Both the position numbers and the translations under genes were made by a program. From Cylindrodendrum hubeiense (lineage: Eukaryota > Ascomycota > Sordariomycetes > Hypocreales > Nectriaceae), in assembly GCA_014621425.1 (NCBI GenBank), contig JAANBB010000186.1, positions 1 to 64,000 of the forward strand: a DNA stretch of 64,000 nt. Direction: 5' to 3'. A model generated the notes under the pieces. The model was not told the origin of the DNA, made no database searches, and saw nothing but the letters and a program-made list of their open reading frames with translations. Shown in pieces: positions 17,061 through 58,666 of the stretch. Numbering within the stretch: position 1 is the first letter of the stretch; every line of letters starts with the position of its first letter.

Positions 17061-17517
17061 TTGTTACGTTGATGTCAGATTGTGGTACTTCAGAAGCTTC
17101 CTCACAGTGCTGGTGCTGACTTTAACTCGAAATCAGAGTCACGTGCCTGGTGAATCGATAACATCCCGGCCCGAAATTTCTGCATTTGCTGACAGGGCGA
17201 CCGACGAGTAGCATCACGGTAAGCCAAATAAATGTCTCCGACCATACCACAGGATCCCAGCAAAATTAATAGTACGTGCAGTTTATTAGTTTTGAGTGAG
17301 ATAGGGTAGCATGCTCGGAGACTTTTCGCTTCTACTCGTGTTAATCCGTCGAGGTTGGAATTTAGCCGTAGAGCGTAAAAAGCCGGAACCCGCAATTCTT
17401 ATCAGGTATATAACCATGTCAGCACAAGGTAGGATTATTGTTAATTTCTATACTTCTTTTTTTCTTATTTTGCCCCCGACCTGATAGACAGACATTATCA
17501 GCTACTTAGTTCAAGAC
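17061..17517. promoter_or_regulatory. divergent promoter region, unknown gene / acyl-CoA ligase
   Basis: The 457-nt gap between two genes transcribed away from each other. A TC-rich tract with a run of T (about 17451-17471) lies just upstream of the ligase ATG, as is common in fungal promoters. No specific site identified. Confidence 0.4.
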
Positions 17518-40588: not shown

Positions 40589-41653
40589 TTAGCAAATATC
40601 TTGCTTTGCATTACCAGAGAGCTTCCATGTCGTATTCTCACCGCACGGAGACTCCCGGACAGAGTTATTGTCCACCTTCAGAGTAATTGAAATGTCGCGG
40701 TTGTTCGAGAACTCGCTGCGAGCTGCGAGACGAACCTCTCCTCCACCATTTACGGTACCACCGAGAATAGAGATATTGTAGCAGTTTTCGATGAGAATGG
40801 CGTTATTGCCGTTGCTTGCGAGGTCAACGCTCTTGATTTCTGCCCCTCCGGATTCCGAGACACAAAAGACACCACGACCGCCACCACGAGAGACAACTTT
40901 GTCAATATAGACATTTGTCTTGTAGTTGCCGTTGCCCAAATCGCCATTTTTGTTCGCAAAACGCAAGGTGCCGTATCCAGTGCCTGCGCCAACATTGTTA
41001 CCGTCGACAAGCCCAACCCGCGCATCTCTGGTGTTCTGAAGCAGCAAACCAGACTCGCCGACGTTTCTCGCGATGACCTGGTTAATTTGAAGGCCATTGA
41101 TGTTCCAAGTCTCGACAGCGTGGCTGCCAGCTCCGGTGACAGTAATAACGTCCATTTTGACATTAGAGTTCGCGGCCCTGTCGCGGTCGAATCGAATACC
41201 CATACCACCGCTCAGGTTCATGGTGATTTTGCCCAAGACCAAGTTCTTGGTACCAGAGAATCGCAAGCCAAAGTAAGGGTTGCCGGTCATAGTGAGGTAT
41301 GGTATCTGAACATCCGATGTGTCCGTAGACTCGATAGCACCACGCCCACTTCTCATGGCAGCGTTGATGGTACCACAGCCCTCAAAGACCTTTCCACTGC
41401 TAATGGTGATAGTACTGGCACCAATAGAGCCAGAGGCAATAACGGAGACTCGCTGGCCGGTACTGATGGAGTCGACAGCGGCCTGGATCGCGGCGCGGTA
41501 GTCAGAACCTGAATACACCGAACTTGAGCCTCTGGTGGCCGTGAAGGAAGTGCCCGAGCCAGTCACTTTGGCGTGTGGCGAGCCCGCACCACACTGGGCT
41601 TGGACAAGAGAGACAAGTGCAAGCACTGTCGTGAGAGTAAAAGAGCCGATCAT
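40589..41653 (-). CDS. secreted right-handed beta-helix protein, pectate-lyase fold
   Basis: Single exon, 354 residues. An N-terminal signal peptide (MIGSFTLTTVLALVSLVQA) is followed by a mature protein of short repeated turns rich in Gly, Asn, Val and Ile. Examples are ITISSGKVFEGCGTIN, IPYLTMTGNPYFGLRF, NLVLGKITMNLSGGMGI and VYIDKVVSRGGGRGVF. This is the pattern of the parallel beta-helix shared by pectate lyases, polygalacturonases and related polysaccharide enzymes. It probably acts outside the cell on plant wall polysaccharide. I do not see the polygalacturonase NTD/DD/HG signature, so it is not a classical GH28 enzyme and the activity is open. The cysteines near the C-terminus (ESPCGENTTW and the final C) may pair. 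Confidence 0.85.
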   Translation of the reverse strand: MIGSFTLTTVLALVSLVQAQCGAGSPHAKVTGSGTSFTATRGSSSVYSGSDYRAAIQAAVDSISTGQRVSVIASGSIGASTITISSGKVFEGCGTINAAMRSGRGAIESTDTSDVQIPYLTMTGNPYFGLRFSGTKNLVLGKITMNLSGGMGIRFDRDRAANSNVKMDVITVTGAGSHAVETWNINGLQINQVIARNVGESGLLLQNTRDARVGLVDGNNVGAGTGYGTLRFANKNGDLGNGNYKTNVYIDKVVSRGGGRGVFCVSESGGAEIKSVDLASNGNNAILIENCYNISILGGTVNGGGEVRLAARSEFSNNRDISITLKVDNNSVRESPCGENTTWKLSGNAKQDIC

Positions 41654-42926
41654 AGTGTTTATTGCCTTGCACTTTCTGGGGAAAAAAAGAAATCAGGCGG
41701 TGATACTTTCCCTTGCGGTTTGGCAAAGGGTAAGGGCAGCTTATTTATCTTATTTTCAAACTGGTGGGTGTAATGACCCACTGGAACTCGTATAAGGTAC
41801 TTTTATCGTAGGCACTTTAATTAGTCGGTAATACTAATATATTCACTACACGGTACCGGATAAATTCCGTGGTGGGCTTTCATCCATAATCCATGCATGA
41901 CGTCTTTCACTAGCACACAAGTGTACGTACATGAAAGCTGTCTACCGCGGACATAGAGGCTCCGTCGGATTATTTTGGGTGCATTAGCTTTGCATCGGTG
42001 ATAGGTCGTGTTATCAGGGGTGGAGATGACCAACCTCAATCTCAAAACCGGAGTAATGCTTCCAAGTTGAAGCCGTTTGCACTCCCCTAGCGTATCAACA
42101 CTTTCACCGGACTCCGTGGCTCAATTTTCCATGGCTTCCATTTATGCTTACAGTATGGGCAGCGCGAAACGTATTAGCTGTTCTGAAGTATTATCCAGTG
42201 TTGTTGATAGCAGTAACAATCAGTCAGTCCTTAACTTAGCAGACATGCATCCATTAAGTCGGTCAGAGTCACCCGAGGAGAATCCCTGAAGGTTTAAGCT
42301 TAAAGACTTAGCGCCACCCGGAATGTTTCGTCAGCTATTGCCGGAAGTTCCAAACAAGGATCCGGAGCGTTACTCCGTTCCCGTAGCAGCCGAGACATCG
42401 TGTGTCTGTACCGTAAACGGGGTGGGTGCTTTCCAGGCTTTAGTACGAATGGTTGGCTGGACCTGGAAAGTAATTTCTAGTGGAGGGGCTAGAACTCTAT
42501 CTCCTTGTGTATCACAGGGGTTACATTGGTGCGAAATTCATAGCATGTTTCAATACGAGAGCCAAGCGACTGGGATCCTTTGTCCTGAGCCCTCATCTCT
42601 CACTATGCTTAAAAAGGAAGTGGGATCTGCACTCAAAATCAGGTGATACATTCGTCGCTCTCACATTTGATTGAGGGATCAAGGTTTAATTAAGCTCTAA
42701 CTGAATGTGGATCCATAATCTGATGGCTACAATGATCCAGGACGCTTCCAGTCCACCTTTCCTGGACAGCCCTTGGGTCAATGCCACGCTCTCTGACTTC
42801 ACTAAGAATATCGGTATACCCGAGGATTATGGAAAGCGAGTCTCAATCCAACAACATGCAAAATCAGAAATCTTGGCCATGTCAGCTCTCGCTTGTTTTT
42901 AATACATTAGCATCATGGACATCTAT
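41654..42926. other. intergenic, no gene seen
   Basis: Upstream region of the beta-helix gene and 3' flank of the regulator gene. Short frames have no motif or splice support. Confidence 0.5.
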
Positions 42927-45900
42927 CTAGATCGGAAATCGTTTAAACCACTGCTGAATCTCATTCGAAAAAAAGGTACCCAGTTCAAGCTCATCCTGAA
43001 AGCCAGTTATTGCTTCCTCTTGCATTGGCATTCCCATCAACATCTCAGGCCGAAGATCAATATTGCTTTGAGAAATATCCGCCGATGCGTAGTGGGGGCT
43101 GAACTGGACGTCTGAATTGGTCAATTCTAATGTTCGAGGAGAGTTTGGGGTCACTAAAACACAGTTGAGTACAGACACATGAGCAACTGCACGAATCGGC
43201 TCACCCCAGTTTTCAACAAGTCCTGACAGCCGTCTCAGATAGTCAACGCATTGACTTAGAATGGCATTCTGTGCTCCAAGTTGGACAAGTGCTTCGGCCG
43301 ACTTCTCTAGAAATCGTCGTACTAGATCCAAACGGTCGGAATTAATGGTATTGTTGGTAGTATCCTCCATTGGCACCAAAAGGCTGCCAAATATCACCAA
43401 TGCAGCGTTGAAGGCTACAAAATTTACAGTTAGCAACCATCTTTAGAAACCAACTCATAGAGCGGCTGTAGAAGGTAGCAAGACTCACTGTAATATAAAG
43501 TGAACCACCAAGCTCCAATCAAGTGCCGCCCAAGGCCTGGTTTAGTAAGGACCACGTGAATGATCTCAATAATATCCTCCGCTGCTCTCACACACGTGCG
43601 ATTGAAGTTTGTCTGCATTTGGTTAACCGACCTCTGATTACGGCGTGATGGACTTGGATCTCTCGCGCATCCAGCAAGGGAATTTGTGAGCATCGGCCTG
43701 TGAAGCAGAAGTTGAACACTAAGATATCTCAACGACAGGATTAATCTGAACCGTTCAGTGGCTCGGTCCTCCGGCACACATTCCCCGGGCAGATTAGACG
43801 AGGACCGCAGGAACAGCGGCGAGGGCAAAGAATTATGCCAATCACTCAGTTCTTGCTCCAAGTTGAATATCTGTGTGATCATCGTTGTTTCAGAAGGTGG
43901 ATCCTCGCAACCTAAGTTGTGGCCGTAAAGAGTGGCAATGACCTTCCACATCACTCTGTACAGGAGACTGTGGCAATTTAGTACATACTAGCCCCAGGGA
44001 CTTTTGTGAAATCCTACATCGTAGCATTAAAGAAGGAAATACTGGTGTCGTCATGGATTGTGACGTCCCCACAGTATGGTAAGAGAGGTCTCGGAAGGTC
44101 TAATTTGACGTAGTCTTCGGGTATTGCGCCTGGCCGACCGAATGTCATACTCAAGCTCCTAATATCGAGTCAGAACGATAGCTCAAGAAATTCTCGCTGG
44201 TTAGTCGCCGCCATCATAAGCAATGATTAAGAATGGGTAAACCAGGCCAAGTTGAGTTGTAGGATCGGATGTTAAATACCTGTCCAGCAACACGCATCCG
44301 AACCAAGTTCTCTTTCTCATTTCCTGTTCTATGGGCGGAAATTTAGACATTGCATCCCTTGAATGGAGGCCAATTGATAAAGCAGCTTTCACTGCCAGGC
44401 CGTGAGTAGTCCATGTTTGCACAGACTTCTGTGTGCTCTGCAGGTACTGACTCATAAGTAGGAGGTATTGCACTTTGTCAACGTTAGCAGCCAATCCAGA
44501 AAATCTACCCATTAATTTGGATGCAAGAAACCTTACCGGTTTCGAGAGTAGTCCCCCTAAGCATTTGAGTCTTGCAGAGCTCTCTTGCCCGACGGTAATA
44601 AACATCGGATTTCTCAGAATGATACTCGGCAGCATCTTCGGCCCAGCCTGTAGTGCATATAGCCATGGCGAGAATCATGTTAAGAAGTCCCAACCATGTT
44701 CGACGAACATTGGTTCGAAAGTTCTGCTGTCTCATTTGTTCATATGTCTCCAAGAAACTCTGTTGATGAATGAATGGAAAGAGAAGTCCGGTGTTTGTGA
44801 AGTATGATTGGATTAACTTTCGCGTTTCATGGTCGGGGGGGAGCACGTTTGTCTCAACCGCACTCATCGTCTCCCCGGAATGGCCTGTGATGGAAGAGGC
44901 CGAGATTGGACGAGAGACATTGATCATGCTCGTTTGGTAGAAGTTTATGCCATTTGATGAGGATGGAGAAACGTAATCACCCGTTGTCGCACTTTGTTTG
45001 GCCATGGCGCGGAATATTTGGCGCATGAAGGCAATGTTTGATGACGGCCCTTAAGAGGCAGGTTATTAGACATACGATTGGGCAGGCTAGAGGTGGACTG
45101 CGTACCAAAGAATCCACAATCTTGATCATCAACGAATGACAGAGCCATCCCGTCCGTCATGCTCTGGCCCATTGGCTGATCTTGAATGCCCTCGACATTG
45201 ACGACAACATTGTTGGGGACAATGGGTTGTTGTGCTGTGGACTTCTCGGGATTGCATACGCCTTTCTGACGCCAATCTTCAACCTCTGTTAAACGATGGC
45301 CTTGCTGCCTGACGGTAGCCTCAAGCGTCCTCACTTTGTCCTCCAGGTCGGTAAATAAGCTGTGACATCAACTCATTAGCAACGCGGTGCAGAAATCGGG
45401 GTTTAGCAGGACTAGACCAGTCCGGACCGTACGATCATCTCACCAGTGATTCAACTTACTCTCTTGGAACCAATAGATTAGCAGACGTATCGGGTAGTTC
45501 GTAGATACATTCGAAGCCTAGCCGCTCACAAGGCTCGCACCTTGGTCGTACACCATTGCACTACGAATGGAAATTCTGCGGGTTTAGCACCGTCCATGGG
45601 GCGAACCAATTGGGCTATAACGGGGACTCTCACACGAGATTTTCGTATTCGGCACGCGGAACAAGCCAACCCAACCCGACGGCGTTTTGGGGCTTGGGTT
45701 GGCTCCTGATCTTCTGCACTCCCAACATTGGATGTCCGGTTAGTGCCAGCGACCGACACGTCGTCGTCGTGACCCATCGGTATGTCTTCGTCTCTCGCGA
45801 CGAGATTGGCAAGGCTCCCCGCTTGTGAGAAAAGTGGGCGGACGATAGAGGACTGCTCCGAATGTCGCCGAGGTGGAGAAGTAGGCTGAGGATCCGGGGA

Positions 45901-46068
45901 AGGATTGGGACGGAAGCCGACTCTTATAATCACCGCCATGGAGAAGTGAGGGGAGATTTCGCCCCAACCCCACATTCCGGGACATGCCGTAGGTGACATG
46001 GCCCCTGGGAAGACTTCAGCTACCGCAAGAGCGATTGCTGTCGCGTCCCTGCTTATCTGTGGGTTCAT
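42927..46068 (-). CDS. Zn2Cys6 transcription factor with fungal-specific regulatory domain, cluster regulator candidate
   Basis: Eight exons: 45634-46068, 45460-45560, 45106-45359, 44537-45049, 44280-44472, 44018-44158, 43489-43955 and 42927-43414; 863 residues. The binuclear zinc cluster spans the first intron: RRRVGLACSACRIRKSR continues as CNGVRPRCEPCERLGFEC. A coiled-coil linker follows (DLEDKVRTLEATVRQQGHRL). The middle homology domain (Fungal_trans) shows FGPSSNIAFMRQIFRAMA, FPFIHQQSFLETYE, EMRKRTWFGCVLLDRSLSM and TFGRPGAIPEDYV. The conserved frame fixes all introns. Divergent from the FAH-family gene, with a 305-nt shared promoter containing CGGGGAACCG. Its place at the edge of the catabolic genes suggests it controls them; this is inference. 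The exact start ATG is uncertain. Confidence 0.9.
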
Positions 46069-46185
46069 GTGGGCTGAACTGCCGAAACATGATGTAACCC
46101 AATACCGCCTAAAGTCGAATTAGTGTCATTTCGTTACACTCTGAATCTGCCGCTTTCCCCAATCAAGTCGGCTAGATCCGGCTTT

Positions 46186-46195
46186 CGGGGAACCG
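46186..46195. promoter_or_regulatory. CGG-N4-CCG element in regulator/FAH promoter
   Basis: CGGGGAACCG, an inverted CGG/CCG pair typical of Zn2Cys6 binding sites, lies 118 nt upstream of the regulator ATG and 179 nt upstream of the FAH-family ATG. Similar elements recur at 49981, 49994, 53982 and 56571. Confidence 0.5.
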
Positions 46196-46373
46196 TCGGG
46201 ACAGCTCCCCGGCCTGATCGCCCTGGGCACACCGTGATAAAATAACATGGATGGCGATTTAAGCTGGTGCACTTCTCCTCTAATGAGTCCATCTGTTCAT
46301 CAATCATCAAATCATCCAGTTGACCTGCTAGATTTCACGAACCATCAAGACCCTATCTGCAAAATTCGACAAC

Positions 46374-47502
46374 ATGAAGGTTGCTTGGGAACGTTTAATT
46401 CGTTTTGTCGCTACAGATGGCCGAGTCCTGTATGGAGAGCCGATCCTTCCTCACCCGGACTTTGACATTGGTGACACCACAGATGAGACCAGGCTCCAGG
46501 CGCGGGTCATTGAGGGAAATGATTTATACGATACGAAGGGGATTACTCGGGTCACAGACAACATCGTTACTGTCAAGAAGCTTCTCGGCCCGATAACGCA
46601 TTCGGATGTACCCATTCTGCGATGCGTTGGGCTAAATTATGCGACACACAGTTAGTACACCTATAACCGACAGGGAACTTTTAGGCTGTTTATGCACTAC
46701 TAATACTGGTGCGTATAGTTCGCGAAGCTGGCCGAAAGCAACCGCCCTTTCCCTCCATATTCTTTAAACCCTCTACCACTGTGACCGACCACGGAGCAAG
46801 TGTAGTAATCCCGAGGATTGCTCAAGATGACCAAGCCGATTACGAAGGCGAACTGGTAGGTGTGATAGTCTGGGACGCAAATTTCATCTGCCAATTTGGA
46901 CGCGTGGCATCCCCGTGTATCATACAAAGGCTCACGCACATTCTAGGTTGTCGTACTAGGAAAGGATGCAAAGGATGTTTCAGTGTCTGATGCACTCGAT
47001 TACGTCGCGGCTTACACGGTAGGTAATGACATCTCATCACGAAAATGGCAAAGGGATCCCTCCCTTGCGGGCGGTGTACCGCAGTGGGGTTTCTCGAAAG
47101 GGTTTGACACTTATGCGCCGCTCGGGCCTGTCCTGGTTTCGAGCAAGCTGGTACCTGATCCTGCAGATCTTCATCTTCAAACGGTTGTGGATGGGGAGTT
47201 GCGGCAAGATGCGGGTGTGGATGACCTTGTCTTTTCCATCCCTCAACTGATTGCGCATTTATCATCCGGAACTACCTTGCAAAAGGGTAGCGTAATTATG
47301 ACGGGTACTCCAGGAGGTATGAGTCTTTCTCCGTCTTGCGACTTTGTTATTCCATAAAGTCAACCCGAGCTAATCAGTATTCTCAATGAAAGGAGTCGGT
47401 GCTGGGATGAAGCCACCACGGTATCTTGTTCCTGGAACAACCATGGAGGTAAAGATCTCAGGGATAGGGACGCTAAGAAATGGTGTCGAATTTTCTTCAT
47501 AG
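46374..47502 (+). CDS. fumarylacetoacetate hydrolase family protein (probable maleyl-/fumarylpyruvate hydrolase)
   Basis: Exons 46374-46650, 46719-46855, 46947-47316 and 47378-47502 give 302 residues. Typical FAH-fold motifs are seen: RCVGLNYATH, PSIFFKPSTTVTDHG, ADYEGELVVVLGKDAKDV (with the metal-binding Glu pair), AYTVGNDISSRKWQ, GFSKGFDTYAPLGP, and SVIMTGTPG. The intron at 46856-46946 is set by the junction GELVVVLG. Members cleave the carbon-carbon bond of 1,3-diketo acids. Next to a gentisate dioxygenase the likely substrate is maleylpyruvate or fumarylpyruvate, giving pyruvate and maleate or fumarate. No maleylpyruvate isomerase is in the window. Divergently transcribed from the Zn2Cys6 regulator. 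Confidence 0.92.
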
Positions 47503-48174
47503 AATATATATTAATCTGAGTAAGACAAGTTGAGTCCTACAATAGCCTATGGTTCTTTGCCATGATCGAGCATCAGTTATTGCTACAGTTTTGACGAAAG
47601 AGATCTTGCCAATGTCGTCTTAAGTTCGTTAGTATGTTAGTTCAACGATGTTCTAGAATGTAACGGGGGAATGGCCATCTAAGGCCTTAAGAAATTGTGA
47701 AGGCTTAGGGAAGGTAACGCTTGACTGAACCAATGAAACAATGCAAATCCTTTTCAGCCAAAGACAAGTGTCATTCACTTCCTCTACACCTTACGTGTTA
47801 TGTCTTTGGCTTCGGGTTCTCATTGAAGACTATTCTGACTCTAAACCGGGTTAACCTCACTACTAAACTTTCTCTCTCCTCATCATGGAACAGGTGTCGG
47901 GCTAGGGTCACAGTAGCTGCCAACACTTTAGGTCTCCAGAAAGTATTGAGAACAGGATAAGGATCTATCTAAGGAGCTGGCTGGTTTGGCCTCTATTTAT
48001 CACAACTATTGAAGCCCTTGACCGCTATTTTCTTCCTTCTTTGTTTGCTTGGCCAGTTGTCATCGCGATGCGGCTCGCCTTTTTGTGATCGTACAGCTTG
48101 ACAAGCATCGGACTTAGCAGCGGGCTAAGTTCCACTCATACCAGCTTACCCTATACCTGAGCCATGGAGCAGCC
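47503..48174. other. convergent intergenic region, no gene seen
   Basis: Spacer between the 3' ends of the FAH-family gene and the FAD monooxygenase. One 79-codon frame has no support. Confidence 0.5.
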
Positions 48175-49834
48175 CTAGATTTTGTGCTTCGAACCTTCTC
48201 CAACTCTAGCCCCCATCTCGAAATGCCATGCCTTTCTTAACTCTGCTTCTGCATCATAGCCATATGTCCAAAGCTGTGTTACAGGATCGCTCCACTGATT
48301 CGTGCTCTCAATGAAATACTTTCCCTCAACTTCGGCTCGCATTCCGCTATCTCGAGCCTGCTGCTCTCTTCCATCTGGAAAGTGCCAGAGCTTACCATTC
48401 ACTAGGCTCGCTGATTGCATACCATAGCTACGGCTCATTCTCTCCTTTTCGAAAACGTGAAGCGCATCCGGAATTTGTTCCTTTGAAGAAATAAGACATA
48501 ACGCTTCAGAAAGAGCGGCGCCATCTTCCACGGCCATTGCAGCCCCCTGGGACATATAAGGCACCATAGCATGTGCAGCGTCCCCTAGAATAATGAGCTT
48601 GCGGCTTTTGGAGATCCAAGTCGGGAGACGAGCGCCACTTAAAAGGGGCCATTTTATCGTCTTAGTTACTAAATGAATGACTTTTTTAAGCCTGAATGCC
48701 TGTGTGAGCAAGTTCTGTACATGTCGGTTGCACGAAGGATGACTTACTTCGGGTCCCAGTTTTCGAAGTGGCTTCTCATGTCTTCAATTGCTTTTTGGGA
48801 ATTCCAAGTGCTTGGGTCAGTGTGGTCTACATGTGATAGTACCATGTTGAAAGATTTTCCTCCCGCGATGCAATATGTCATGACGTGTCGGCCCTCCCCA
48901 ATCCTGAATGATGAATGTTAGCAAACACCGGTGTCAAAATTGAGAGCACTCACCAAATGTTGATACCCGGTTTTTCAAGAAGCCAGGAGGTATCGGGATC
49001 GATCTTCATCTGATCAGTGTTCACCACAGCTCGATATGCTGCGAATCCTGTTTTGGTTGCCGGCTTGTCTACACCACCAATGACAGCAGCTCTTGCCACA
49101 GATTTGACACCATCAGCAGCGACAATGAGATCCGCAGTGTACTCCCGTCCGTCTTCCGTCTTGACTGATGGCGCCCTTTCGTCGTATCGGACTACCTTGC
49201 TGTTGGTAATTACCTGAACGCCTAGCTGAGCCGCAAGGCTACACAAAGCATGATGGAAGTCTGCACGGTGGATCACAAAGTACGGGGCGCCATATGTCTC
49301 ACTGAAGTTTGGCATGAGCTTTGTGTAGCCAATGGCGCCTCCATCTTCCCAACGACGAAAGGTCATGCTGTCAGGTTCTACAACTCGGCCCTCGATGAAT
49401 GGTCCAATACCCCAAGAGAGGAGAAGTCTTGCAGAGTTGGGTGGGATCTGAATACCAGCCCCAACCTAAGTTGATGGGTCTTGTTAACACGAGTTTCTTT
49501 CAAAACAGCGGATCAAAAAATATCTTACCTCTCCCAGTACGGCAGCTTGCTCCAAAACAGTAACTGTATGTCCACGACGTGCTAAAGCCACCGCCGTTGC
49601 GAGACCGCCGAGGCCAGCACCCACAACCAAGATCTGTAGAGGGACTACGGCTTTGAACAAAGTCACGTCTCGGCCATTCTCTATCTGTTGCAACTTTCTA
49701 AGAAGTGCTGTTGACTGTGACGGGTAGTCAAAAACCTGGAAATTGTAGAATGAGTCAGATTTGGTTCGTGACTGTCACGATGTGGTAGAGTCATGAAATC
49801 TTACCTCTTCTGATATTATTGTGCCGTTCATCAT
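48175..49834 (-). CDS. FAD-dependent monooxygenase, salicylate/3-hydroxybenzoate hydroxylase type
   Basis: Five exons: 49805-49834, 49529-49735, 48954-49465, 48748-48903 and 48175-48691; 473 residues. Family motifs are in order: the dinucleotide-binding ILVVGAGLGGLATAVALARR, the DG motif DLIVAADGVKSVAR, and the GD motif LIILGDAAHAMVPYMSQGAA followed by MAVEDGAALSEAL. The junction WDPKLKKVIHLV sets the last splice. Group A flavin hydroxylases of this type add oxygen to hydroxybenzoates using NAD(P)H. In a cluster with gentisate dioxygenase it most likely makes gentisate from salicylate or 3-hydroxybenzoate. Divergent from that dioxygenase over a 357-nt promoter. No targeting signal seen, so probably cytosolic. 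Confidence 0.93.
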
Positions 49835-49980
49835 GGTTGGGTGTTGATGCCGCAATTTCATGAGCTGGATATCTTGAACAGTGACTTCTACAGCATGATA
49901 AGACGAAGGTAAGAGACCACAAAAGCTTATGAAACATCCGCATTTGTAAGTCATTATTAAAGCAAGTGCGATCTCCGCAT

Positions 49981-50006
49981 CGGGGAAGCATCCCGGTGTT
50001 CCCCCG
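49981..50006. promoter_or_regulatory. CGGGGAA elements in monooxygenase/gentisate dioxygenase promoter
   Basis: CGGGGAAGC at 49981-49989 and, on the other strand, CGGGGGAACACCG (49994-50006 as CGGTGTTCCCCCG). They lie about 150-170 nt from the monooxygenase ATG and about 190-210 nt from the dioxygenase ATG. Confidence 0.45.
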
Positions 50007-50191
50007 CTTAATTGTGGCAGGACGACAGACACCGGGTATATTTCGGGATGCTCCCTTTCAGCGCGTAGAAAGAAAAGTACAAAGCTATGACGAAAATGTC
50101 CAAGTGTTCACCCGATAATAGGCAATCCATGATTGAACGAAGTCAACATAGCTTCTCAATTTCGTCATTAATTTCACTACGAAAAGAAACA

Positions 50192-51482
50192 ATGGGTGTC
50201 AGTAACGGCTGCAACGGGATTTCCGCCTCGGCCAACGGCCATGAATCGATCGCAAGCGATGCAATCACTACCCAGGAGCAGCTTCTCCAGGCATTGGAGG
50301 CTACCAAGACAGCTCCACTATGGGCACAGATGCAGCGGCTGAACCCACCTGCCCCGAGTCCTAGAACCGTGCCGTACCTCTGGGCATATGATGCTATCAG
50401 GCCTTACCTCCTGCGAGCTGGTGCTATAATCACTGAAAAACAGGCTGAGAGACGTGTTCTCATGCTTGCCAACCCAGCTAGAGGTAAGTCCCGTTCCTCT
50501 CCTGATGCCGCATACTCCCAGGCTCCCCACGATGCTCAGCTGCAGCTTCCATGGACTAATGTGGTGGTTAACAGAGGCGCCGTATACAACTGATACACTG
50601 TATGCCGGCCTGCAGCTCGTTCAACCCCGAGAAACTGCCCCTGCGCATCGCCATACAGCTTTTGCATGTCGTTTCATCATTGAAGGCAAAGGAGGCTTCA
50701 CTGCCGTACATGGGCAACGTGTGCCGATGCATCCTCGTGACGTAATTGTCACCCCGACGTGGAACTGGCATGATCATGGAAAGAAGGGTGCAGATGAAGA
50801 GGGCGGAGATGATCAACCAGTCATCTGGCTCGATGGGCTTGACTTGCCCAACTTCGTCCACTTTCCCGTCCATTTTGTCGAGCACTTTGAAAATGCCAGA
50901 TACCCGGCTGAAGAGATGGACGAGTCCCCAATTTTATTTCCGTGGAAGGAAATGCAGGCCAAACTTGAGGCTGGCCAGGGCAAATGGACGTCGGTGCCGT
51001 ATCTCAAAGCAGATGGTAGAGAAAGTGAGTTCACCCTTCCATCTTCCACCTGATCCTTACCGCTTTCAACTTTGCACAAATGCCCATCTTTGGATATTTG
51101 CATGTAGTATATCCTCCACATTCACTTTTTGAAACCAGTGATCAGCATATATTCTAACCTTTGACGTTTATTTACAGTTGGCCGTGTTATTGGTGCTTCT
51201 GCCGAAAGGCTCAACGCTGGCTTCGAATCTCCTGCCGTGTGCGAGACTGCCTCTTCCGTCTACCATGTAATTGAAGGATCAGGTCACTCCAAAATTGGCG
51301 ACTTGTCTCTGTCATGGAAGCAAGGTGATACATTTTGCATCCCAGCCTGGCATCAGTATCAACATTTCGCAGATGCCAGTGGCAAGGCCTACCTCTATCG
51401 TTTTGATGACAAGCCCATGCTCAAAGCACTTGGTTTCTACCGCGTTGAAGGAATGGATCTCGAGAAGTATGTTTCAGATTAA
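50192..51482 (+). CDS. gentisate 1,2-dioxygenase
   Basis: Exons 50192-50483, 50575-51024 and 51178-51482 give 348 residues, the usual length for the family. It is a bicupin. The N-terminal cupin holds [19 protein letters not shown] and [17 protein letters not shown], with the His residues that bind Fe(II). The C-terminal cupin has [17 protein letters not shown] and [32 protein letters not shown] is a typical N-terminal segment. It opens the ring of gentisate between C1 and C2 to give maleylpyruvate. The ATG at 50192 (MGVSNGCNG) was preferred; an upstream in-frame ATG at 50087 would add a Ser-rich leader that looks like 5' UTR. Divergent partner: the FAD monooxygenase, so the two steps are probably co-regulated. 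Confidence 0.94.
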
Positions 51483-52087
51483 TATTTAGCGATGAGCAGG
51501 ATAACTCAATTTCGAGTTTAACTTGTGGAACGCTTCTTTGACTTCGCTGAATGGGGAATATGCATCAATAAATCAGACAGCTGTTACATTAGCAGTTTTC
51601 TCACAAGACCAAATATCTGGATATGGGAATCATATTGAGCCATAAATACTATGTCGTACTTATTTCTTGGTAGTCTTATCAATGTTCTCTCAAGTTCTGA
51701 GTGTCATCGGGCTTCAATCAAACGCAAGAGTCTACGTAGAAGGTTTCGTGTCATTTGGTCACCCTTTTTTTTCTATCCCAAGGACATCAGAGGCACCTAG
51801 AACCCATATGATAGGCTCTAAGCCACAGAAGACTAGGTATAGGTTTCATTTTACGATCATTCAGCTTCGTAGCTTACTGGATGCAGACTTCTGCCGAGGA
51901 CCGCAGGATCCGAAGAAGGCTGAAGGCAGCTTTCAGTTTCATCGTCTTCTGCATGTACAAACTGATCCCTAGACCATTATTTGGTCGACAAATCAATAGC
52001 CTTCCATCTCTCGGATCACTCTCATCACAAAGTGGAACATATTTGAAAGAAAGATTCCCAGAACGCTATTCAAGGCGAAGTAAGAAC
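51483..52087. other. convergent intergenic region, no gene seen
   Basis: Spacer between the 3' ends of the dioxygenase and the aldehyde dehydrogenase. No supported feature. Confidence 0.5.
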
Positions 52088-53818
52088 CTATGGATGCAAG
52101 GTAATTGTCTGTGTCTGTACAAACTCTCGCAGCCCCCATTCGGCACCAAATCTCCCGAAGCCACTCGCTTTGTTCCCACCGTGTGGTAATGTCGCCTCAT
52201 CATGGACAGTAGATGCGTTGATGTGAACTGCACCAACATCAAGCTTTCGAGCCAATCCCAGAGCACGATAGTGATCTTTTGTCCAAATAGACGCCGAGAG
52301 TCCGTAATCACTAGCGTTCGCCATCAGAATAGCCTCATCCTCATCTGAGACAACAACCACGCCAAGCATGGGCCCGAAAGACTCCATAGAGAAAAACTCC
52401 ATTGTTGGTAGAACATTTTCTATGAGCAAAATGGGAACAACTTGAGTATTCGAGTGGCCTTCAGAGGAGTCAAATGAAGAGGTGACTTTTGATCCCTTCG
52501 CCACAGCGTCGTCAGACAGGGTGCGTGATCTGGTGGCGCTATTAGAGGATATGACCTTGTACGACGTCCCGTATTTCTTGCTGAGAGCCTGCTGTAACTC
52601 AGTTTTGAAATCATCTGCAACCTCGCGAGATACAATGGCAAGATCTGTAGACATACAGATCTGACCTCCCTAGAGATAGTTAGCGGGTTTTACTATATGC
52701 GTCTAATCATTTGTATTAAGAAGAAATGAATATTATGTGGTCAAATTAGAGAAAATGGGTTTATACTCACATTAAGGGTGGCGCCTTGAAGAATCGTCTC
52801 TGCAGCCTTGGCTGTGTCTGCATCAGGGAGAATGATGGAACAGTTTTTCCCACCCAATTCTAGAAGCACCGGCTTGAGCGCCTGTCCAGCCATCTGAGCA
52901 ATAATTCGACCCACAGTCGTCGAGCCAGTGAAATTAACTTTTCGGATTGAAGGGTGTTTGATCAATGTCTCGACAACCTCGGCTGCATCTTCTGGTCGGT
53001 GAAGAATGAGATTGACAACTCCGGGGGGGAACTCAGCTTCGACGAACAACTGAGCAATGAAATGGTGAGTTCTGGGACTTAGCTCAGAGCCCTGTATAGT
53101 CAGATTAAATTTGTCACGTGAAGAAATGTATGAATTTGCATGACATACTTTAAGAATAGCAGTGTTCCCAGCTGCAATAGGAGCCACTACGGCTCTAAAC
53201 CCTAGTATTAGTGGCCCATTCCAAGGTGCGATTCCGAGAACCACTCCTAAGGGACGGTTGAAGACGAATCCATACGAATCTTTGAGCTCTGTGTGAGGGA
53301 TGGAGCCGCTCATAGTATTCGACGTGATCAGTGAGGCAGTTTCTTCGATGAGGGCGACGCTATCGGAAACGTTTCGAGCCGCCCAGTCTTCGGAGCAATG
53401 GATTTCAGCTCTTATGATTCTCTTCGCTTCGTCTTCGCGCTGAAGGAGCAACTAGTGTGATAGAAAGCACAATTAGTTTATTTGGGCTCCATGAGTATTG
53501 ATAAGTTTCTTCGAGGAGCACAAGGCAACTTACACGAGACAGTCGTAAAAGCAGGCTGCGCCGCTCCAGAGGGGATGTTTGCGACCAGCCGCGAAAGGCA
53601 TTGCTGCTACTTGCGATAGCCTCGGCACAATCTGACGCATCAGCACCTTGAAAGGATCCAGCCGGCGACATTTTTTGGAGTCTTGATCTCGATGCTTTGA
53701 AGATGGGCAGCCCATCAATTAAAAGCGGAATTTTAATGACTTCGTCAAGTGTACTTGAACGATCATGGATGCAAAGCTTCTTCGCGTCTAATTCAGTTTG
53801 AGGTTGAGAGAGTGGCAT
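52088..53818 (-). CDS. aldehyde dehydrogenase, salicylaldehyde/benzaldehyde dehydrogenase-like
   Basis: Exons 53534-53818, 53149-53451, 52771-53091 and 52088-52669 give 496 residues. ALDH motifs: GVVLGIAPWNGPLILGFRA (cofactor and oxyanion Asn), KVNFTGSTTVGRIIA, VLLELGGKNCSIIL with the general-base Glu, GGQICMS with the catalytic Cys (just after the last intron), FFSMESFGPMLGV, and near the end HGGNKASGFGRFG. It oxidises an aldehyde to the acid with NAD(P)+. The family is closest, by motif feel, to aryl-aldehyde enzymes such as salicylaldehyde dehydrogenase. In the cluster it would take the aldehyde released by the cleavage oxygenase and supply the hydroxybenzoate for the FAD monooxygenase. 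Confidence 0.93.
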
Positions 53819-54426
53819 CTTGAGAAAATGATATGCTTCAGGACAAACGGTAGGGTAACGATTATGGTACTTTTCGCATCAATTATAGGAAGTATGACGG
53901 TCCATGGAGTGAATCAGTGTCCTGTTACAATCTAGAAACTTTCGAAGGTTTGGGATTTTTATTACAGGAAATATTATGAAGCGGGGAACCTTCGGGTTCG
54001 AAGCCGACATCATATGACAATCGAGGGGAAGTAACGGCGTGTGGGGAACATTAAGCTTAGTACGGTTTGGTTACGCGGCCCATAGAATACATCCATTATT
54101 GAACCTGACGACCTATGGAAGGTATTCAAGAAATATCTCCGTAGGCGGAGTGGCACAAAATCGGTTCGCCAAGAATGGTGTCAGAGAAGGGGTGTAAAAA
54201 CGAGCAACAATAAAGGAGGCGAGTACAGCGATAATAAACTTTAGCGACAAGTTCAACCCTTGGTTTAAGAATACAGTATAAATTCAAGGCATTTCGTAGA
54301 AAATCTAAGTTTGATGCCTTTTCGATGCAACAAAAGGTTTATCTTCACAATCTAGAGTAACATCCCACTCGAAGTACAATCTATACCATAGTATTTGAAG
54401 TGATATACTAGATTTAAGATGCGTAG
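53819..54426. other. intergenic, promoter of the aldehyde dehydrogenase
   Basis: About 600 nt between the ALDH start and the 3' end of the MFS gene, both on the minus strand. Contains the CGGGGAACC element listed separately; otherwise nothing supported. Confidence 0.5.
53982..53990. promoter_or_regulatory. CGGGGAACC element in ALDH promoter
   Basis: CGGGGAACC, followed directly by TTCGGGTTCG, lies about 165 nt upstream of the ALDH ATG. It matches the element at 46186 except that the final G is replaced. Confidence 0.4.
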
Positions 54427-56377
54427 CTAATAGTTGGCATTGCCAGATCCAACAACCTTAATGAGGGTCGTTTGATATGCCTCTCTTGCCTTGCGCCCAA
54501 AGAAATAGGTGGGAATGGCTAACAGCATTGACAGGCTAACGACCATGAACATGACCATATAGACCTGAATCCAACCCTGAGAATCAATCCAGTCAACGGC
54601 AACGTAGAGAAAGAGAAATGCAACCAAGTTCTTGGTAACATTTATGGCAACGAGGATCTCCTGAGCGAAGACCGGATATGAGTCAAGTAGATATGTCATG
54701 GCGATATTGGGAGCGTAAACGGTGCCGAAGGAAACTAATTGGGGGTTATTTTAAAATGCATCGTCGCAAATCTTGTGTTATGAGTAACTTACCCATTCCA
54801 AATCCAACCGCAATAGCTGCCCAATGAAGTGTTTTATCACAAGCAAAGGCCACGATAATGCAGCCTATTGGTGCGATAAGGCAGCCCGGACCAAGAGACA
54901 CAAGACGGTGCTCGGGGACAAAGACACCATGGTTGCGTACAATACACCGAGCCGTTATCACATCGCAAATATACCCACCACCATAGCAAGCAATGACGAA
55001 GCCTATAATAGCTGCCACCTGCATAAGTCCCACGCTACTGGAAGGAAACAGATAGGGAGGGGAAAGAAGAAGAGAAGGAAAAGCAAAGCTATATTGGTAT
55101 CAGCTCTTGTCACTGAGTTTGTAAGACTGGAGGGTTGTGAAAGAAGCGTACATTAAGATGACTTGAGATCCGAGCGCGCTTCCGTAGACAAGAATTGTCC
55201 ACAACACTGGAAGACAACCCAAGAACGCAAAGGGTAGCGCAAATGCCCTAGGAAGGCTGACCAGGGGATTGTAATGGATGAAAGACGCCCAGACTTTCGG
55301 CAATGAGATGCTAACAGGGCCATTACCGCCTTGTTCTTCAAGATGCTCGGAACGACCTGAAGCCACATTTGATGCGTTGTCGAGCTCATCTTTTGTGGTA
55401 CTGCCTCCATTTTGATTCGAGGCTGGTAGCGGAGACTCGGGCAACGGTGGGCGAATGAATGATGATTCTGGATAAAACAGAAAAATGGCGAGGAAGTCGA
55501 AGCCGGCTATAGCAGCGCAAAGCCAGACAAAGTCTCGCCACGTTCCAGGGCTGCTTTCAACCATAAATCCAGCAATTAATGGCCCTGCAGCCGAGCCACA
55601 AGAAATAAGTACTACATATCTAATCAAAAAGAAGCACCGCGCGCGTTAGCTGATGATGTTTAGTTATGGATGTTAACTTACATAGACATCATAGCTCCAC
55701 GTTCGTGAAGATAAAACATGTCAGAGATAACTCCAGGTACGATGCTCTAAGGAATATCAGTGATGATCAAGTATGGAGGTGTACTAGACTTGTATTCATC
55801 TTTCCTCATGTCTGAATCCAGGAATACTTACTTCGCCAGCTGCCGAGACAAATCCGGAAAGACACCGGGCAGCTAGTATCTCAGAGAATGATTCTGCTTT
55901 TGCAGTCCAAATAAGAATTGCAAAGAGCATGCCCATTGAAATGAGTAGAACCGGCCGTTTACCATATTTAACTGAGAAAGGGACCCAGACCATGTTACCT
56001 ATTCCAAGCAGAAGAAAGTTGAACTGTATCAGACAGACCGAAATGTCAGTATTGTTGAGTACGGTAATAGTGCATTAGAGAGAGGGAGAAATTCAGTTTT
56101 CTCGTACCGTCATCAGGGAATTGACTTCTTGGGCGGTTTTGTGGAATTGCATCTCAAATATGACTTCTGCAACGGAGAGACCAGCACCGGCAAAGTTTGC
56201 CACAAAGTTGAAGAACGCCACAGATATCAGGGCAAGAATCTTGATCCATCGGGGCCAGCGCAATGGGTCTCTCTCGTCGCTAGATGGCGGTGGCCATAGT
56301 CCTAAACTGTGATGATGTTTGGACGAGGCATCGACAATGACATTCTCCGTGGTAAACAAAATCCTTGTGTCTGCCAT
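54427..56377 (-). CDS. MFS transporter of the aromatic catabolic cluster
   Basis: Six exons: 56108-56377, 55832-56023, 55682-55746, 55152-55619, 54793-55088 and 54427-54734; 532 residues. The ATG at 56377 opens MADTRILFTT. Helices include WIKILALISVAFFNFVANF and FLLLGIGNMVWVPFSVKYGKRPVLLI (motif A-like region). A cytoplasmic central loop is rich in Ser/Asn/Glu (around PLPASNQNGGST), followed by six more helices. The layout with a short N-terminal hydrophilic part and DPLRWPRWIKI before the first helix is common in DHA1-type carriers of fungi. Located between ALDH and the cleavage oxygenase and divergent from the latter, it is a good candidate for uptake or export of the aromatic substrate. 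Direction and substrate are inference. Confidence 0.88.
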
Positions 56378-56570
56378 GATTGATAATATGAGATGTATGG
56401 GTAGATTGGGCTTGGACAAGATTCAGGAAATTGGGGTGGCTATGAATATAACTTTTGAGGAATGATGGACAGGCATAGCGCAGCGCATATGGAATCACGT
56501 AGATAAAGGGGACTGCAATGAGTTGAGTCGTTGCATATGAGAGCTTCGGCGTTGACCCGGATTTCCCCCA

Positions 56571-56581
56571 CGGGGTAACCG
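56571..56581. promoter_or_regulatory. CGG-N5-CCG element in MFS/cleavage oxygenase promoter
   Basis: CGGGGTAACCG, an inverted CGG/CCG pair, in the 440-nt promoter shared by the MFS gene (194 nt upstream) and the carotenoid-oxygenase-family gene (237 nt upstream). Confidence 0.5.
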
Positions 56582-56817
56582 CGGATCTGTCCGTAAAAGC
56601 TTAATTATGCTTTGTAGATGCGGAGACCCCGCAAGGGTCGTTGTTGCGTGGCCTCGTCATCGCCAATAGAGATGAATGTATTTCAGTCGCGTCGCCGGGG
56701 CAATATCGGGAGTGGCCCGAAGCGCTCGACGTTAAGTACCCCAGATCAAGCTAGCCCCGCGTCTGGAAATCATCTCATTCACATTCACGACTAAGACACT
56801 TGTTGATCTCAGTTATC

Positions 56818-58666
56818 ATGGCAGGACATTTCCGCGGAACCTCATCCCAAGTTGGCAAGGCCTTCCCCAACTCGCCCCAGTTCTCGGGCTTTATGAAACC
56901 CTGCCGTTTCGAGGGAGACCTCAAATTCCTCGAGGTAGAGGGCGACTTGCCCGAAGAGCTCGATGGCACATTCTACCGGGTCATGCCTGACCCTCAATTC
57001 GTGCCTTTTATTGAGAATGATCCCGTACGTGTATTCGACCAAACATCACTCCTCATATTTGGAGCCTCAAGTGAGCCCCAGGCGAATTATGGTGGCTGAC
57101 ATGCCTTCTTCCAGTGGTTTAACGGCGATGGAAACATTAGTGCGTTTCGTTTCAGCAAAGGCAATGTCCACCTCCAGCAGAAGTACGTCCGTACAGAAAA
57201 GTTCCTGAAGGAAAGGGACGCACAGCGCGCACTTGGTGGTAAGCATCGGAACGCATTACTATAATTGCTATATATCTTCAAGGCGCAGAAGGGCTGATTT
57301 AGCCATTCTTAACAAACAGGCAAGTATCGAAACAAGTATACGGATGCTGTCGAGTTTAAAGTCCGTACGACAGCCAACACCAACATATTTTACTTCAACA
57401 ATGTTCTACTCGCCATAAAGGAGGATGCACCGCCGTTTGCTATGGATCCTATTACGCTTGATACAATCGGCCTCTGCGATTTCAATGGCCAACTACCAAG
57501 TCTAACATTCACCGCCCATCCAAAGCTGGACCCAGTCAGCAGAGAGCTAGTATGCTTTGGTTATGAGGCCAAAGGCGACGGTACTCCAGACGTGTGCTAT
57601 TACAACATTGATTCAGACGGAAAGTTCACTGAAGTGGTTTGGCTGGTGGCTCCTGTCGTAGGCATGATCCACGACTTCGCCGTAACTGAGAACTGGGTGA
57701 GTACATGAAAAAGGATGTGGGTGCAGATTACCGTTTCGATAAATGCTGACTTATCTACTATAGGTTTTATTTCCAATAATTCCTCAGGTATGCGACATTG
57801 ACAGACTTAAACAAGGAGGGGAACATTGGCAATGGGACCCAAATGTTCCCTTCTATCTGGGCGTTCTACCACGTCGAGGAGCTCAGGGACGTGATGTCAA
57901 GGTATGGCACAGTCTCTCTACTTCTCATGCAAGCTACGTTCTGGATCGATATATTGAGCATTCCAATTGAAGTTTTCACACCATAACTAACTCATTTTAT
58001 TTACAGTGGTTCAAGGCTCCGAATGCATTCCCCGGTCACACTACTAATGCATACGAAACATCTGAAGGCCAAATTGTTTTTGATCTTCCTCTAACCGACA
58101 AGAATGTGTTCTTTTGGTGGCCAGATGCCAATGGGAATGCACCGAGTCCCCACGACATCCAAGCTAAGTATGTCCGATTTACGCTAGATCCAAGGGCGTC
58201 AGACCTCGACCTGCCAACCCCCGAAGTCATTCTAGAGCGTGATATGGAGTTCCCAAGAATCGATGACCGCGTATCGATGAAACGCCACCACCACAGCTTC
58301 TTCGATATGATGGATCCAGAACTAGGCACTGACTTTGCCGCAATTGCTCCAGTTCTCGGCGGTGGTCATCCTTTGTACAACTCTCTAGGTCACCTTAACC
58401 ACCAGACGGGCCAACTTGAGGTTTATTTCCCAGGGAAGACGCACATGGTACAGGAGCCAGTGTTTGTGCCAAGATCAGACACTGCACCAGAAGGCGATGG
58501 GTTTTTGATGGCGCTAGTAAACAACTACAGAACCATGTCGAGCGAACTGCATATCCTTGACACACGGAATTTCTCTACGGCTCGAGCGATTGTGAAACTC
58601 AACATTCGATTAAGGGCAGGTCTCCACGGGAATTGGGTTGATGCCAAAGAGTTCACCAGCCATTAA
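56818..58666 (+). CDS. carotenoid/stilbene cleavage oxygenase family enzyme
   Basis: Exons 56818-57024, 57115-57238, 57320-57696, 57764-57901 and 58007-58666 give 501 residues. Family signatures: GDLPEELDGTFYRVMPDPQF near the N-terminus, then WFNGDGNISAFRF after the first intron, SLTFTAHPKLDP, GMIHDFAVTENW, WQWDPNVPFYLGVLPRR, and HHHSFFDMMDPELG. The end reads GLHGNWVDAKEF. The four iron-binding His are visible at about residues 177, 228, 375 and 489. Enzymes of this group cleave a conjugated C=C bond with O2. Fungal relatives such as Neurospora CAO-1 cut stilbenes (resveratrol, piceatannol) and not carotenoids. Given the ALDH and gentisate genes alongside, cleavage of a hydroxylated stilbene or phenylpropenoid to an aromatic aldehyde is the best guess. 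No transmembrane or targeting signal. Confidence 0.93.

What the first reader, a model, noticed from the sequence alone, without database searches (positions are those of the whole stretch)
42927..58666. Seven-gene cluster that looks like a complete stilbene-type cleavage plus gentisate catabolic pathway
In 16 kb there are a Zn2Cys6 regulator, a carotenoid/stilbene cleavage oxygenase, an aryl aldehyde dehydrogenase, a salicylate-hydroxylase-type FAD monooxygenase, gentisate 1,2-dioxygenase, a FAH-family hydrolase and an MFS carrier. The family functions chain naturally: C=C cleavage to an aldehyde, oxidation to a hydroxybenzoate, hydroxylation to gentisate, ring opening, hydrolysis to central metabolites. 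Fungal gentisate genes and single stilbene-cleaving oxygenases are known, but I do not know of this combination described as one cluster. It would let the fungus destroy plant defence stilbenes and feed on them.
Basis: partly seen in the sequence, partly recalled or inferred. Interest (0 to 1): 0.88.

Follow-up and report, generated by a model that had tools for sequence, protein, structure and literature searches.

The report
Fungal stilbene-breaking and ring-opening gene cluster
Seven neighbouring, intact fungal genes look like one jointly controlled set for cutting plant stilbenes in two and opening the resulting aromatic rings; this gene set was already described in 2014, but which ring it really digests is still open and can be tested.

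Summary
Seven intact, spliceable genes of the stated families lie at 42927-58666. The combination is not new: Greene et al. 2014 (PMC3914699) describe these seven genes as the 'gentisate catabolism' (GC) cluster of Aspergillus fumigatus and report 23 GC clusters in three fungal classes. Here it lies in a Nectriaceae-like genome (oxygenase 91% identical to Ilyonectria).

The 'salicylate hydroxylase' is closer to 4-/3-hydroxybenzoate hydroxylases. A 4'-hydroxystilbene yields a 4-hydroxy ring, which does not lead to gentisate by one plain hydroxylation. Searches for two isomerase families (maiA, GFA) gave no match on the window's contig, so this resembles the 'gentisate-like' cluster whose role Martins et al. 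2021 leave open.

Two additions that I did not find in the papers seen: (1) a direct repeat, CGG-N8-CGG, lies in all four intergenic promoters, so the seven genes are probably one regulon; (2) the genome has a second, distinct gentisate locus with an isomerase candidate (GFA family). This suggests, but does not show, that the window cluster digests the 3,5-dihydroxy half of stilbenes through 3-hydroxygentisate, which would need no isomerase.

The parts
42927..46068 (-). Zn2Cys6 transcription factor (ctfG-like), 8 exons, 867 aa; zinc cluster CSACRIRKSR|CNGVRPRCEPCERLGFEC split by an intron
   Evidence: spliced model; Pfam Zn_clus 37.2 bits and Fungal_trans 104.8 bits; 5' end uncertain (alternative starts at 46307)
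46374..47502 (+). FAH-family hydrolase (fphG-like), 4 exons, 297 aa
   Evidence: Pfam FAA_hydrolase 226.7 bits
48175..49834 (-). FAD aromatic monooxygenase (sahG-like), 5 exons, 473 aa; Tyr-His pair of 3HB6H conserved
50192..51482 (+). gentisate 1,2-dioxygenase-type bicupin (gdoG-like), 3 exons, 348 aa
   Evidence: TIGR02272 261.9 bits, below its cut-off of 442; Fe ligands and pocket residues aligned
52088..53818 (-). aldehyde dehydrogenase (adhG-like), 4 exons, 496 aa
   Evidence: Pfam Aldedh 382.8 bits
54427..56377 (-). MFS carrier (mfsG counterpart), 6 exons, 532 aa; MFS_1 rather than sugar-porter type by score
   Evidence: MFS_1 111.7 bits against Sugar_tr 36.9
56818..58666 (+). stilbene-cleavage-type oxygenase (sdoG-like), 5 exons, 501 aa; histidines H177, H228, H293, H489 at the Fe-ligand positions; Y113 and K144 at CAO1 Y133 and K164
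46069..46373 (.). divergent promoter regulator/hydrolase, with CGGN8CGG site 46186-46199 (+)
49835..50191 (.). divergent promoter monooxygenase/dioxygenase, with sites 49993-50006 (-) and 50033-50046 (+)
53819..54426 (.). region upstream of the aldehyde dehydrogenase, with site 53982-53995 (+)
56378..56817 (.). divergent promoter MFS/oxygenase, with sites starting at 56547, 56571 and 56696 (+)

Best explanation
An intact, jointly regulated degradation cluster of the known GC / 'gentisate-like' kind. The oxygenase cuts the central double bond of 4'-hydroxystilbenes into two aromatic aldehydes; the aldehyde dehydrogenase oxidises them to hydroxybenzoates; the FAD monooxygenase adds a hydroxyl para to an existing meta-hydroxyl, giving gentisate or a hydroxylated gentisate; the bicupin dioxygenase opens the ring; the FAH hydrolase splits the product into pyruvate and a C4 acid; the MFS carrier moves substrate or a toxic product; the Zn2Cys6 protein switches the seven genes on through a CGG-N8-CGG direct repeat found in every intergenic promoter of the cluster. 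Shown by sequence: families, integrity, catalytic residues, linkage in other fungi, the shared repeat. Inferred: substrates, order of steps, which protein binds the repeat.
For: Intact gene models and families. Oxygenase: CAO1 702 bits and 59.0% identity over 481 residues, lignostilbene dioxygenase model 520 bits against carotenoid cleaver 206 (cut-offs 800 and 675 not reached), histidines and the CAO1 Y133/K164 pair kept. Dioxygenase: Fe-His and most pocket residues kept. Same seven genes named together in A. fumigatus. Linkage in other fungi. Promoter repeat: 7 of the 26 CGGN8CGG sites of the window lie in the four promoters, all four hit, random placement p = 0.0004 and 0.00035. In print: Phomopsis liquidambari turns resveratrol into the two aldehydes and then 3,5-dihydroxy- and 4-hydroxybenzoic acid (passage of the review PMC9593044); a Scedosporium gentisic-acid cluster is induced by gentisic acid and lignin (passages of PMC8283699; its abstract says the transporter gene was not overexpressed on gentisic acid).
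Against: No expression or metabolite data for this fungus. In A. terreus the gentisate-like cluster responded later and less than the catechol branch on salicylate, and its authors conclude it is apparently not used for the gentisate formed there (passages of PMC7842363); a 2025 review nevertheless assigns that gentisate to a dioxygenase of the cluster (PMC12388069). The main text of an A. flavus resveratrol RNA-seq paper contains dioxygenase, gentisate, salicylate and lignostilbene zero times (PMC4589122; supplements not seen). The nearest listed dehydrogenase is only 71% identical (Ilyonectria robusta) while oxygenase and dioxygenase reach 91 and 87%, and the I. robusta dioxygenase and dehydrogenase rows do not share a contig length, so the dehydrogenase is the least secure member. 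17 of 28, 10 of 23 and 14 of 27 species labels showed no shared contig. The 4-hydroxy half of a stilbene must leave by another route. The protein that binds the repeat is not identified.
Confidence: 0.7

Rival explanations
1. Plain gentisate route: the cluster really serves 3-hydroxybenzoate (or 3-hydroxystilbenes) through true gentisate; maleylpyruvate isomerises spontaneously, as Greene et al. propose, or the hydrolase takes it directly.
For: Window dioxygenase fits the gentisate family better than its paralogue (262 against 213 bits; 2d40 221 against 178 bits). Tyr-His pair of 3HB6H kept in the monooxygenase. Greene et al. propose spontaneous isomerisation. A maleylpyruvate hydrolase of the FAH family has a solved structure (6jvv).
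Against: A separate gentisate locus with an isomerase candidate exists in the same genome. Common plant stilbenes do not yield a 3-hydroxy ring (recalled). 6jvv is a weak match, 80 bits against 165 for the best.
Confidence: 0.3
2. 4-hydroxybenzoate route: the monooxygenase attacks C1 of 4-hydroxybenzoate, either releasing CO2 (hydroquinone) or with carboxyl migration to gentisate, so the cluster serves the 4-hydroxy half of stilbenes.
For: Its best solved relatives are 8gsm ('4-hydroxybenzoate decarboxylase', read by me as the decarboxylative 1-hydroxylase) and 8x38 (decarboxylative vanillate 1-hydroxylase), 359 and 355 bits.
Against: Hydroquinone is not a usual gentisate-dioxygenase substrate, and carboxyl migration is known to me from bacteria and archaea only (both recalled). 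In C. parapsilosis the related gentisate cluster serves 3-hydroxybenzoate and shows mostly minor changes on 4-hydroxybenzoate.
Confidence: 0.15
3. Salicylate detoxification: the cluster removes the plant hormone salicylate through gentisate and the oxygenase is an add-on.
For: The 2014 paper's name for the gene is salicylate hydroxylase; a review reports salicylate hydroxylase, (homo)gentisate dioxygenase and FAH hydrolases upregulated in L. theobromae during grapevine infection (passage of PMC9415585).
Against: Salicylate 1-monooxygenase scores only 143 bits and the two solved enzymes named salicylate hydroxylase 113 and 121; the A. terreus authors exclude their cluster from hydroxylating salicylate to gentisate.
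Confidence: 0.1
4. Carotenoid or apocarotenoid metabolism, with the oxygenase a carotenoid cleaver and the neighbours unrelated.
For: The Pfam family RPE65 includes carotenoid cleavers (recalled).
Against: CAO1 and lignostilbene scores far above carotenoid ones; residues Y/K kept; linkage to the dioxygenase in other genera.
Confidence: 0.03

Closest known systems
GC (gentisate catabolism) gene cluster, Greene et al. 2014, A. fumigatus Afu4g01480-Afu4g01550 (PMC3914699; abstract, passages and sections 7, 8 and 11 read)
   Same: Same seven gene families: adhG, sahG, gdoG, ctfG, sdoG, fphG, mfsG.
   Different: Different gene order; host is Nectriaceae-like. It fits neither named subtype cleanly: GC-E is reported only from Aspergillus and Penicillium, and GC-MC clusters lack adhG. 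The carrier here scores as MFS_1 rather than as a sugar porter.
Stilbene cleavage oxygenase clusters, Gluck-Thaler et al. 2018 (doi 10.1111/mec.14943; not held; known through citing passages and recall of its abstract)
   Same: Oxygenase clustered with phenolic catabolism genes.
   Different: Which of its cluster types this one matches could not be checked.
'Gentisate-like cluster' without maleylpyruvate isomerase, Martins et al. 2021, A. terreus ATEG_06711-06714 (PMC7842363, passages read)
   Same: FAD monooxygenase and gentisate dioxygenase in one cluster, no isomerase gene, role left open by the authors.
   Different: The main text holds the word stilbene 0 times; whether the A. terreus cluster includes an oxygenase was not established here.
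Gentisate pathway cluster of Candida parapsilosis MNX2-HBT1-GDX1-FPH1-GFA1-GTF1 (PMC8929692, passages read)
   Same: Hydroxylase, dioxygenase, hydrolase, carrier and Gal4-like regulator of the cluster's own genes.
   Different: Has GFA1 (proposed isomerase) and no oxygenase; its reported motif GGAN7TCC is absent from the window's four promoters.

Membership tests
GC gene cluster (Greene et al. 2014) | Four fully conserved genes fphG, ctfG, gdoG, sahG together | tested here: met
   by family:
GC gene cluster (Greene et al. 2014) | sdoG, adhG and mfsG present (variable members) | tested here: met
   by family; MFS class by score differs from a sugar porter
GC gene cluster (Greene et al. 2014) | At least 50% identity to the A. 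fumigatus query proteins | tested here: inconclusive
   A. fumigatus rows: oxygenase 67-68%, dioxygenase 66%, dehydrogenase 45% (not known to be adhG); the other four not tested
GC-MC subtype | No adhG in the cluster | tested here: not met
   aldehyde dehydrogenase gene at 52088-53818
Gentisate cluster with isomerase (Martins et al.) | Maleylpyruvate isomerase gene in the cluster | tested here: not met
   no maiA (TIGR01262) or GFA (PF04828) match listed on contig C97; other isomerase families not searched
Stilbene cleavage oxygenase | Four Fe-binding histidines | tested here: met
   aligned histidines 177, 228, 293, 489; that these four are the ligands is recalled
Stilbene cleavage oxygenase | Tyr and Lys at CAO1 133 and 164, which hold the 4'-hydroxyl (role recalled; Lys135 of a bacterial relative contacts docked resveratrol, equivalence not aligned here) | tested here: met
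   Y113, K144
Stilbene cleavage oxygenase | NCBIfam lignostilbene dioxygenase cut-off (800 bits) | tested here: not met
   519.8 bits; NCBIfam models are for bacterial and archaeal genomes
Stilbene cleavage oxygenase | Cleaves stilbenes in vitro | not testable with these tools
   needs enzyme assay
Gentisate 1,2-dioxygenase | Three Fe histidines and substrate residues of SDO/GDO structures | tested here: met
   H119, H121, H160, R83, R127, Q108, G106, H162, D174 equivalents kept; R79 is K and A85 is V, as in 2d40; roles of the residues recalled
Gentisate 1,2-dioxygenase | NCBIfam equivalog cut-off (442 bits) | tested here: not met
   261.9 bits; the genome's other copy scores 212.6
3-hydroxybenzoate 6-hydroxylase | Tyr-His catalytic pair (H213, Y217) | tested here: met
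   alignment, role from PMC5472690; also present in 8gsm, so not decisive
3-hydroxybenzoate 6-hydroxylase | NCBIfam equivalog cut-off (459 bits) | tested here: not met
   256.4 bits

The most novel reading that the evidence does not exclude
The cluster is not a gentisate pathway at all but a route for the 3,5-dihydroxyphenyl ring that most plant stilbenes share: 3,5-dihydroxybenzoate is hydroxylated to 2,3,5-trihydroxybenzoate (3-hydroxygentisate), the gentisate-type dioxygenase opens it between C1 and C2 to 2,4,6-trioxoheptanedioate, and the FAH hydrolase splits that into pyruvate and oxaloacetate. With a third keto group the product has no cis double bond, so no isomerase is needed. This would explain why an oxygenase-linked cluster lacks the isomerase gene, why this genome keeps a second gentisate locus with an isomerase candidate, and perhaps why the A. 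terreus gentisate-like cluster is apparently not used for gentisate. Chemical precedent: trihydroxytoluene and 2,4,6-trioxoheptanoate in a bacterial pathway, with the orcinol pathway of Pseudomonas putida cited.
Probability: 0.3. Interest if true: 0.72.

Novelty: new member of a known kind. Interest (0 to 1): 0.42.

Why it matters
Stilbenes such as resveratrol are plant defence compounds, and fungi that dismantle them gain both protection and carbon. The cluster kind is known but its ring substrate has been left open in print. The two loci in one genome, with and without an isomerase candidate, and a simple promoter repeat point to a clear experiment that would settle what isomerase-less clusters do. 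If the 3,5-dihydroxy route is right, annotations of these genes as gentisate and salicylate enzymes would need correction in many ascomycetes.

Tried and rejected
Considered and rejected or left open. (1) Carotenoid cleavage: rejected on scores and residues. (2) Calling the monooxygenase a salicylate hydroxylase: rejected on scores; its true reaction stays open because the C. parapsilosis 3-hydroxybenzoate hydroxylase MNX2 was not available for comparison, and the position of 3HB6H Gln301 (role recalled) is Pro here as in 8gsm. (3) The C. parapsilosis regulator motif GGAN7TCC: 11 sites in the window, none in the four promoters. (4) Residues telling the two dioxygenases of the genome apart: of 20 sites checked only SDO 79 (K against E) and 177 (D against N) differ, and the window copy is the more canonical one by score, which speaks against a new substrate. 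(5) Synteny in named fungal genomes: no fungal genome collection is offered, so contig lengths and locus tags of homologues were used instead; this gives positives only. (6) Structure prediction was not run: I judged that it would not tell the candidate substrates apart. (7) Two papers were not held. (8) Is the 3,5-dihydroxy route in print? One search gave 0 papers; one search gave 1 (passages read); one search gave 1 (not opened); one search gave 9 (passages of 5 read; 4 not opened). I saw no description of the route there. No search was made for the promoter repeat; the GC paper's main text holds 'promoter' and 'binding site' 0 times.


Full report
What is there. Scripts built spliced gene models for the whole stretch. 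The order is regulator (-), FAH hydrolase (+), FAD monooxygenase (-), dioxygenase (+), aldehyde dehydrogenase (-), MFS carrier (-), oxygenase (+). All seven open cleanly, with 2 to 7 introns each and GT..AG ends. Pfam finds the expected family above its cut-off in each.

Source. The oxygenase is 91% identical to one of Ilyonectria sp., 87% to Dactylonectria estremocensis and 86% to Neonectria ditissima (best 120 of 1726 matches listed). The dioxygenase is 87% identical to Ilyonectria robusta (best 120 of 5801) and the dehydrogenase 71% (best 120 of 6090). The genome (47.5 Mb, 798 contigs) is thus from a Nectriaceae-like ascomycete; its species is not known to me.

The oxygenase. It matches N. 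crassa carotenoid oxygenase 1 (CAO1; that 5u8x is this protein is recalled) at 702 bits, 59.0% identical over 481 residues, and the bacterial lignostilbene dioxygenase model at 520 bits against 206 for a carotenoid cleaver (neither reaches its curated cut-off). Histidines 177, 228, 293 and 489 at the iron positions and the residues at CAO1 Y133 and K164 are kept. That this pair reads the 4'-hydroxyl is recalled; a passage on a bacterial relative reports that its Lys135 contacts docked resveratrol and that resveratrol is cut to 3,5-dihydroxy- and 4-hydroxybenzaldehyde (PMC6097328).

The ring-opening module. The dioxygenase keeps the iron and most substrate residues of solved gentisate and salicylate dioxygenases. 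Of 20 sites checked over 120 homologues, 19 are the same in 118 to 120 of 120 and one (SDO 79) varies. The hydrolase is a normal FAA_hydrolase protein. The monooxygenase scores best with 8gsm ('4-hydroxybenzoate decarboxylase') and 8x38 (decarboxylative vanillate 1-hydroxylase), 359 and 355 bits; 3HB6H (4bjy) scores 171 and the two chains named salicylate hydroxylase 121 and 113. In NCBIfam its best model is 3-hydroxybenzoate 6-monooxygenase (256 bits, cut-off 459). The Tyr-His pair named for 3HB6H (passages of PMC5472690) is kept, but also in 8gsm, so its substrate cannot be read from sequence.

Already described. Greene et al. 2014 (PMC3914699; abstract, passages and sections 7, 8 and 11 read) name the same seven genes as the GC cluster of A. 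fumigatus, propose that it may lead from stilbenes to fumarate and pyruvate, and report 23 GC clusters in Dothideomycetes, Eurotiomycetes and Sordariomycetes. Passages of PMC8929692 and PMC10735191 treat such stilbene clusters as known. So the claim that the combination is undescribed is wrong. What differs here is the host and the gene order.

Conservation. No fungal genome collection is on hand, so contig lengths and locus tags of the listed homologues served. Of species or strain labels present in both lists, oxygenase and dioxygenase share a contig length in 11 of 28, oxygenase and dehydrogenase in 13 of 23, dioxygenase and dehydrogenase in 13 of 27; all three in 4 (Sporothrix bragantina, Cadophora sp., Aspergillus pseudoustus, Aureobasidium subglaciale). 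The misses include A. fumigatus, where the cluster is published, so they come at least in part from rows that stand for other strains or paralogues. Some misses may be real: in Fusarium falciforme the tags NW767_014596 and NW767_009331 lie on contigs of different length, and Ilyonectria robusta shows no shared contig for dioxygenase and dehydrogenase. In Nectriaceae (family recalled), Dactylonectria estremocensis and Neonectria punicea link oxygenase and dioxygenase, and Thelonectria olida links dioxygenase and dehydrogenase. Of 11 linked pairs with readable tags in both rows, 6 are consecutive, 3 are 2 to 5 apart, 1 is 11 apart and 1 is far apart.

A shared promoter repeat. CGG pairs at 16 spacings in five arrangements were counted in the four intergenic promoters (1710 bases). 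CGGN8CGG stands out: 7 of the 26 sites in the window, 0.69 expected, in all four promoters. CGGN10CGG also occurs once in each (4 of 25). Random placement of four stretches of the same lengths over the window gave at least 7 sites with p = 0.0004 and all four hit with p = 0.00035 (20,000 placements); none of 48 spacing patterns reached 7 sites in all four in 3000 placements. Random placements include coding DNA, so differences in composition are not fully controlled. Five of the seven sites fit CGGGGNAMYNNCGGR, and these are the only such sites in the window. The whole genome has 47, fewer than the 62 of a reversed control pattern, and in that list no other two lie within 25 kb of each other. 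The consensus was drawn from these sites, so the clustering, not the match, is the evidence. If the regulator starts at 46307 instead of 46068, the first site would lie in its coding part.

A second gentisate locus. The genome has one other dioxygenase match, on contig C490, 43% identical to the window's. Beside it lie a second FAH hydrolase and a GFA-family gene, and a second regulator by my reading of the translation. In C. parapsilosis the GFA1 gene of the gentisate cluster is proposed to encode maleylpyruvate isomerase (passage of PMC8929692; a hypothesis there). GFA matches are common here (23 rows), so a chance neighbour within 10 kb has a probability of about 1% by my estimate. No GFA or maiA match is listed on the window's contig C97 (other isomerase families were not searched). 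No refined repeat site lies on C490; the plain CGGN8CGG occurs 8 times in 16 kb there, two of them upstream of the second regulator but none between the dioxygenase and the hydrolase. So the two loci are probably controlled apart. No monooxygenase match is listed on C490.

What it may really do. Martins et al. 2021 (PMC7842363, passages) call isomerase-less sets 'gentisate-like clusters', note that some fungi hold both kinds, and conclude that the A. terreus one is apparently not used for gentisate. A review passage says Phomopsis liquidambari turns resveratrol into 3,5-dihydroxy- and 4-hydroxybenzoic acid (PMC9593044). Putting these together I propose the 3,5-dihydroxybenzoate route of the novel case. 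It is chemistry by inference. Against it: the window dioxygenase looks more, not less, like a true gentisate enzyme than its paralogue (262 against 213 bits), a 2025 review still assigns A. terreus gentisate to that cluster, and spontaneous isomerisation would also do.

Verdict. Real, intact, probably one regulon, and a new member of a known kind. Its interest lies in the open substrate question and in the means offered here to settle it.

Noticed in passing
own genome, L001, L002, L004, L005, L006 and window 56818-58666: Seven places in this genome match the oxygenase family; six of the seven, the window's included, keep the Tyr/Lys pair and the four histidines of stilbene oxygenases. L003 gave no match to the window protein at E 1e-5. 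It looks like a large set of likely stilbene cleavers; no other genome was compared.
   Followed up: partly
L033-L034 (own contig C490:4000-20000): Second gentisate dioxygenase with divergent FAH hydrolase and a GFA-family gene; a regulator, an adenylation-type enzyme and an NmrA-like gene lie alongside by my reading of the translations.
   Followed up: partly
window 33874-37617 (-): Open frame of 1248 residues with tetratricopeptide repeats and a C-terminal CHAT domain.
   Followed up: no
window 1913-4156 (+): Open frame of 748 residues with a HET (heterokaryon incompatibility) domain.
   Followed up: no
window 40592-41692 (-): Open frame of 367 residues with a signal-like start and no Pfam match; by eye it resembles a secreted pectin-degrading beta-helix protein.
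   Followed up: no
window 62008-63135 (-): Carnitine acyltransferase beyond the cluster.
   Followed up: no
window 17488-19191 (+): AMP-binding acyl-CoA synthetase-type enzyme.
   Followed up: no
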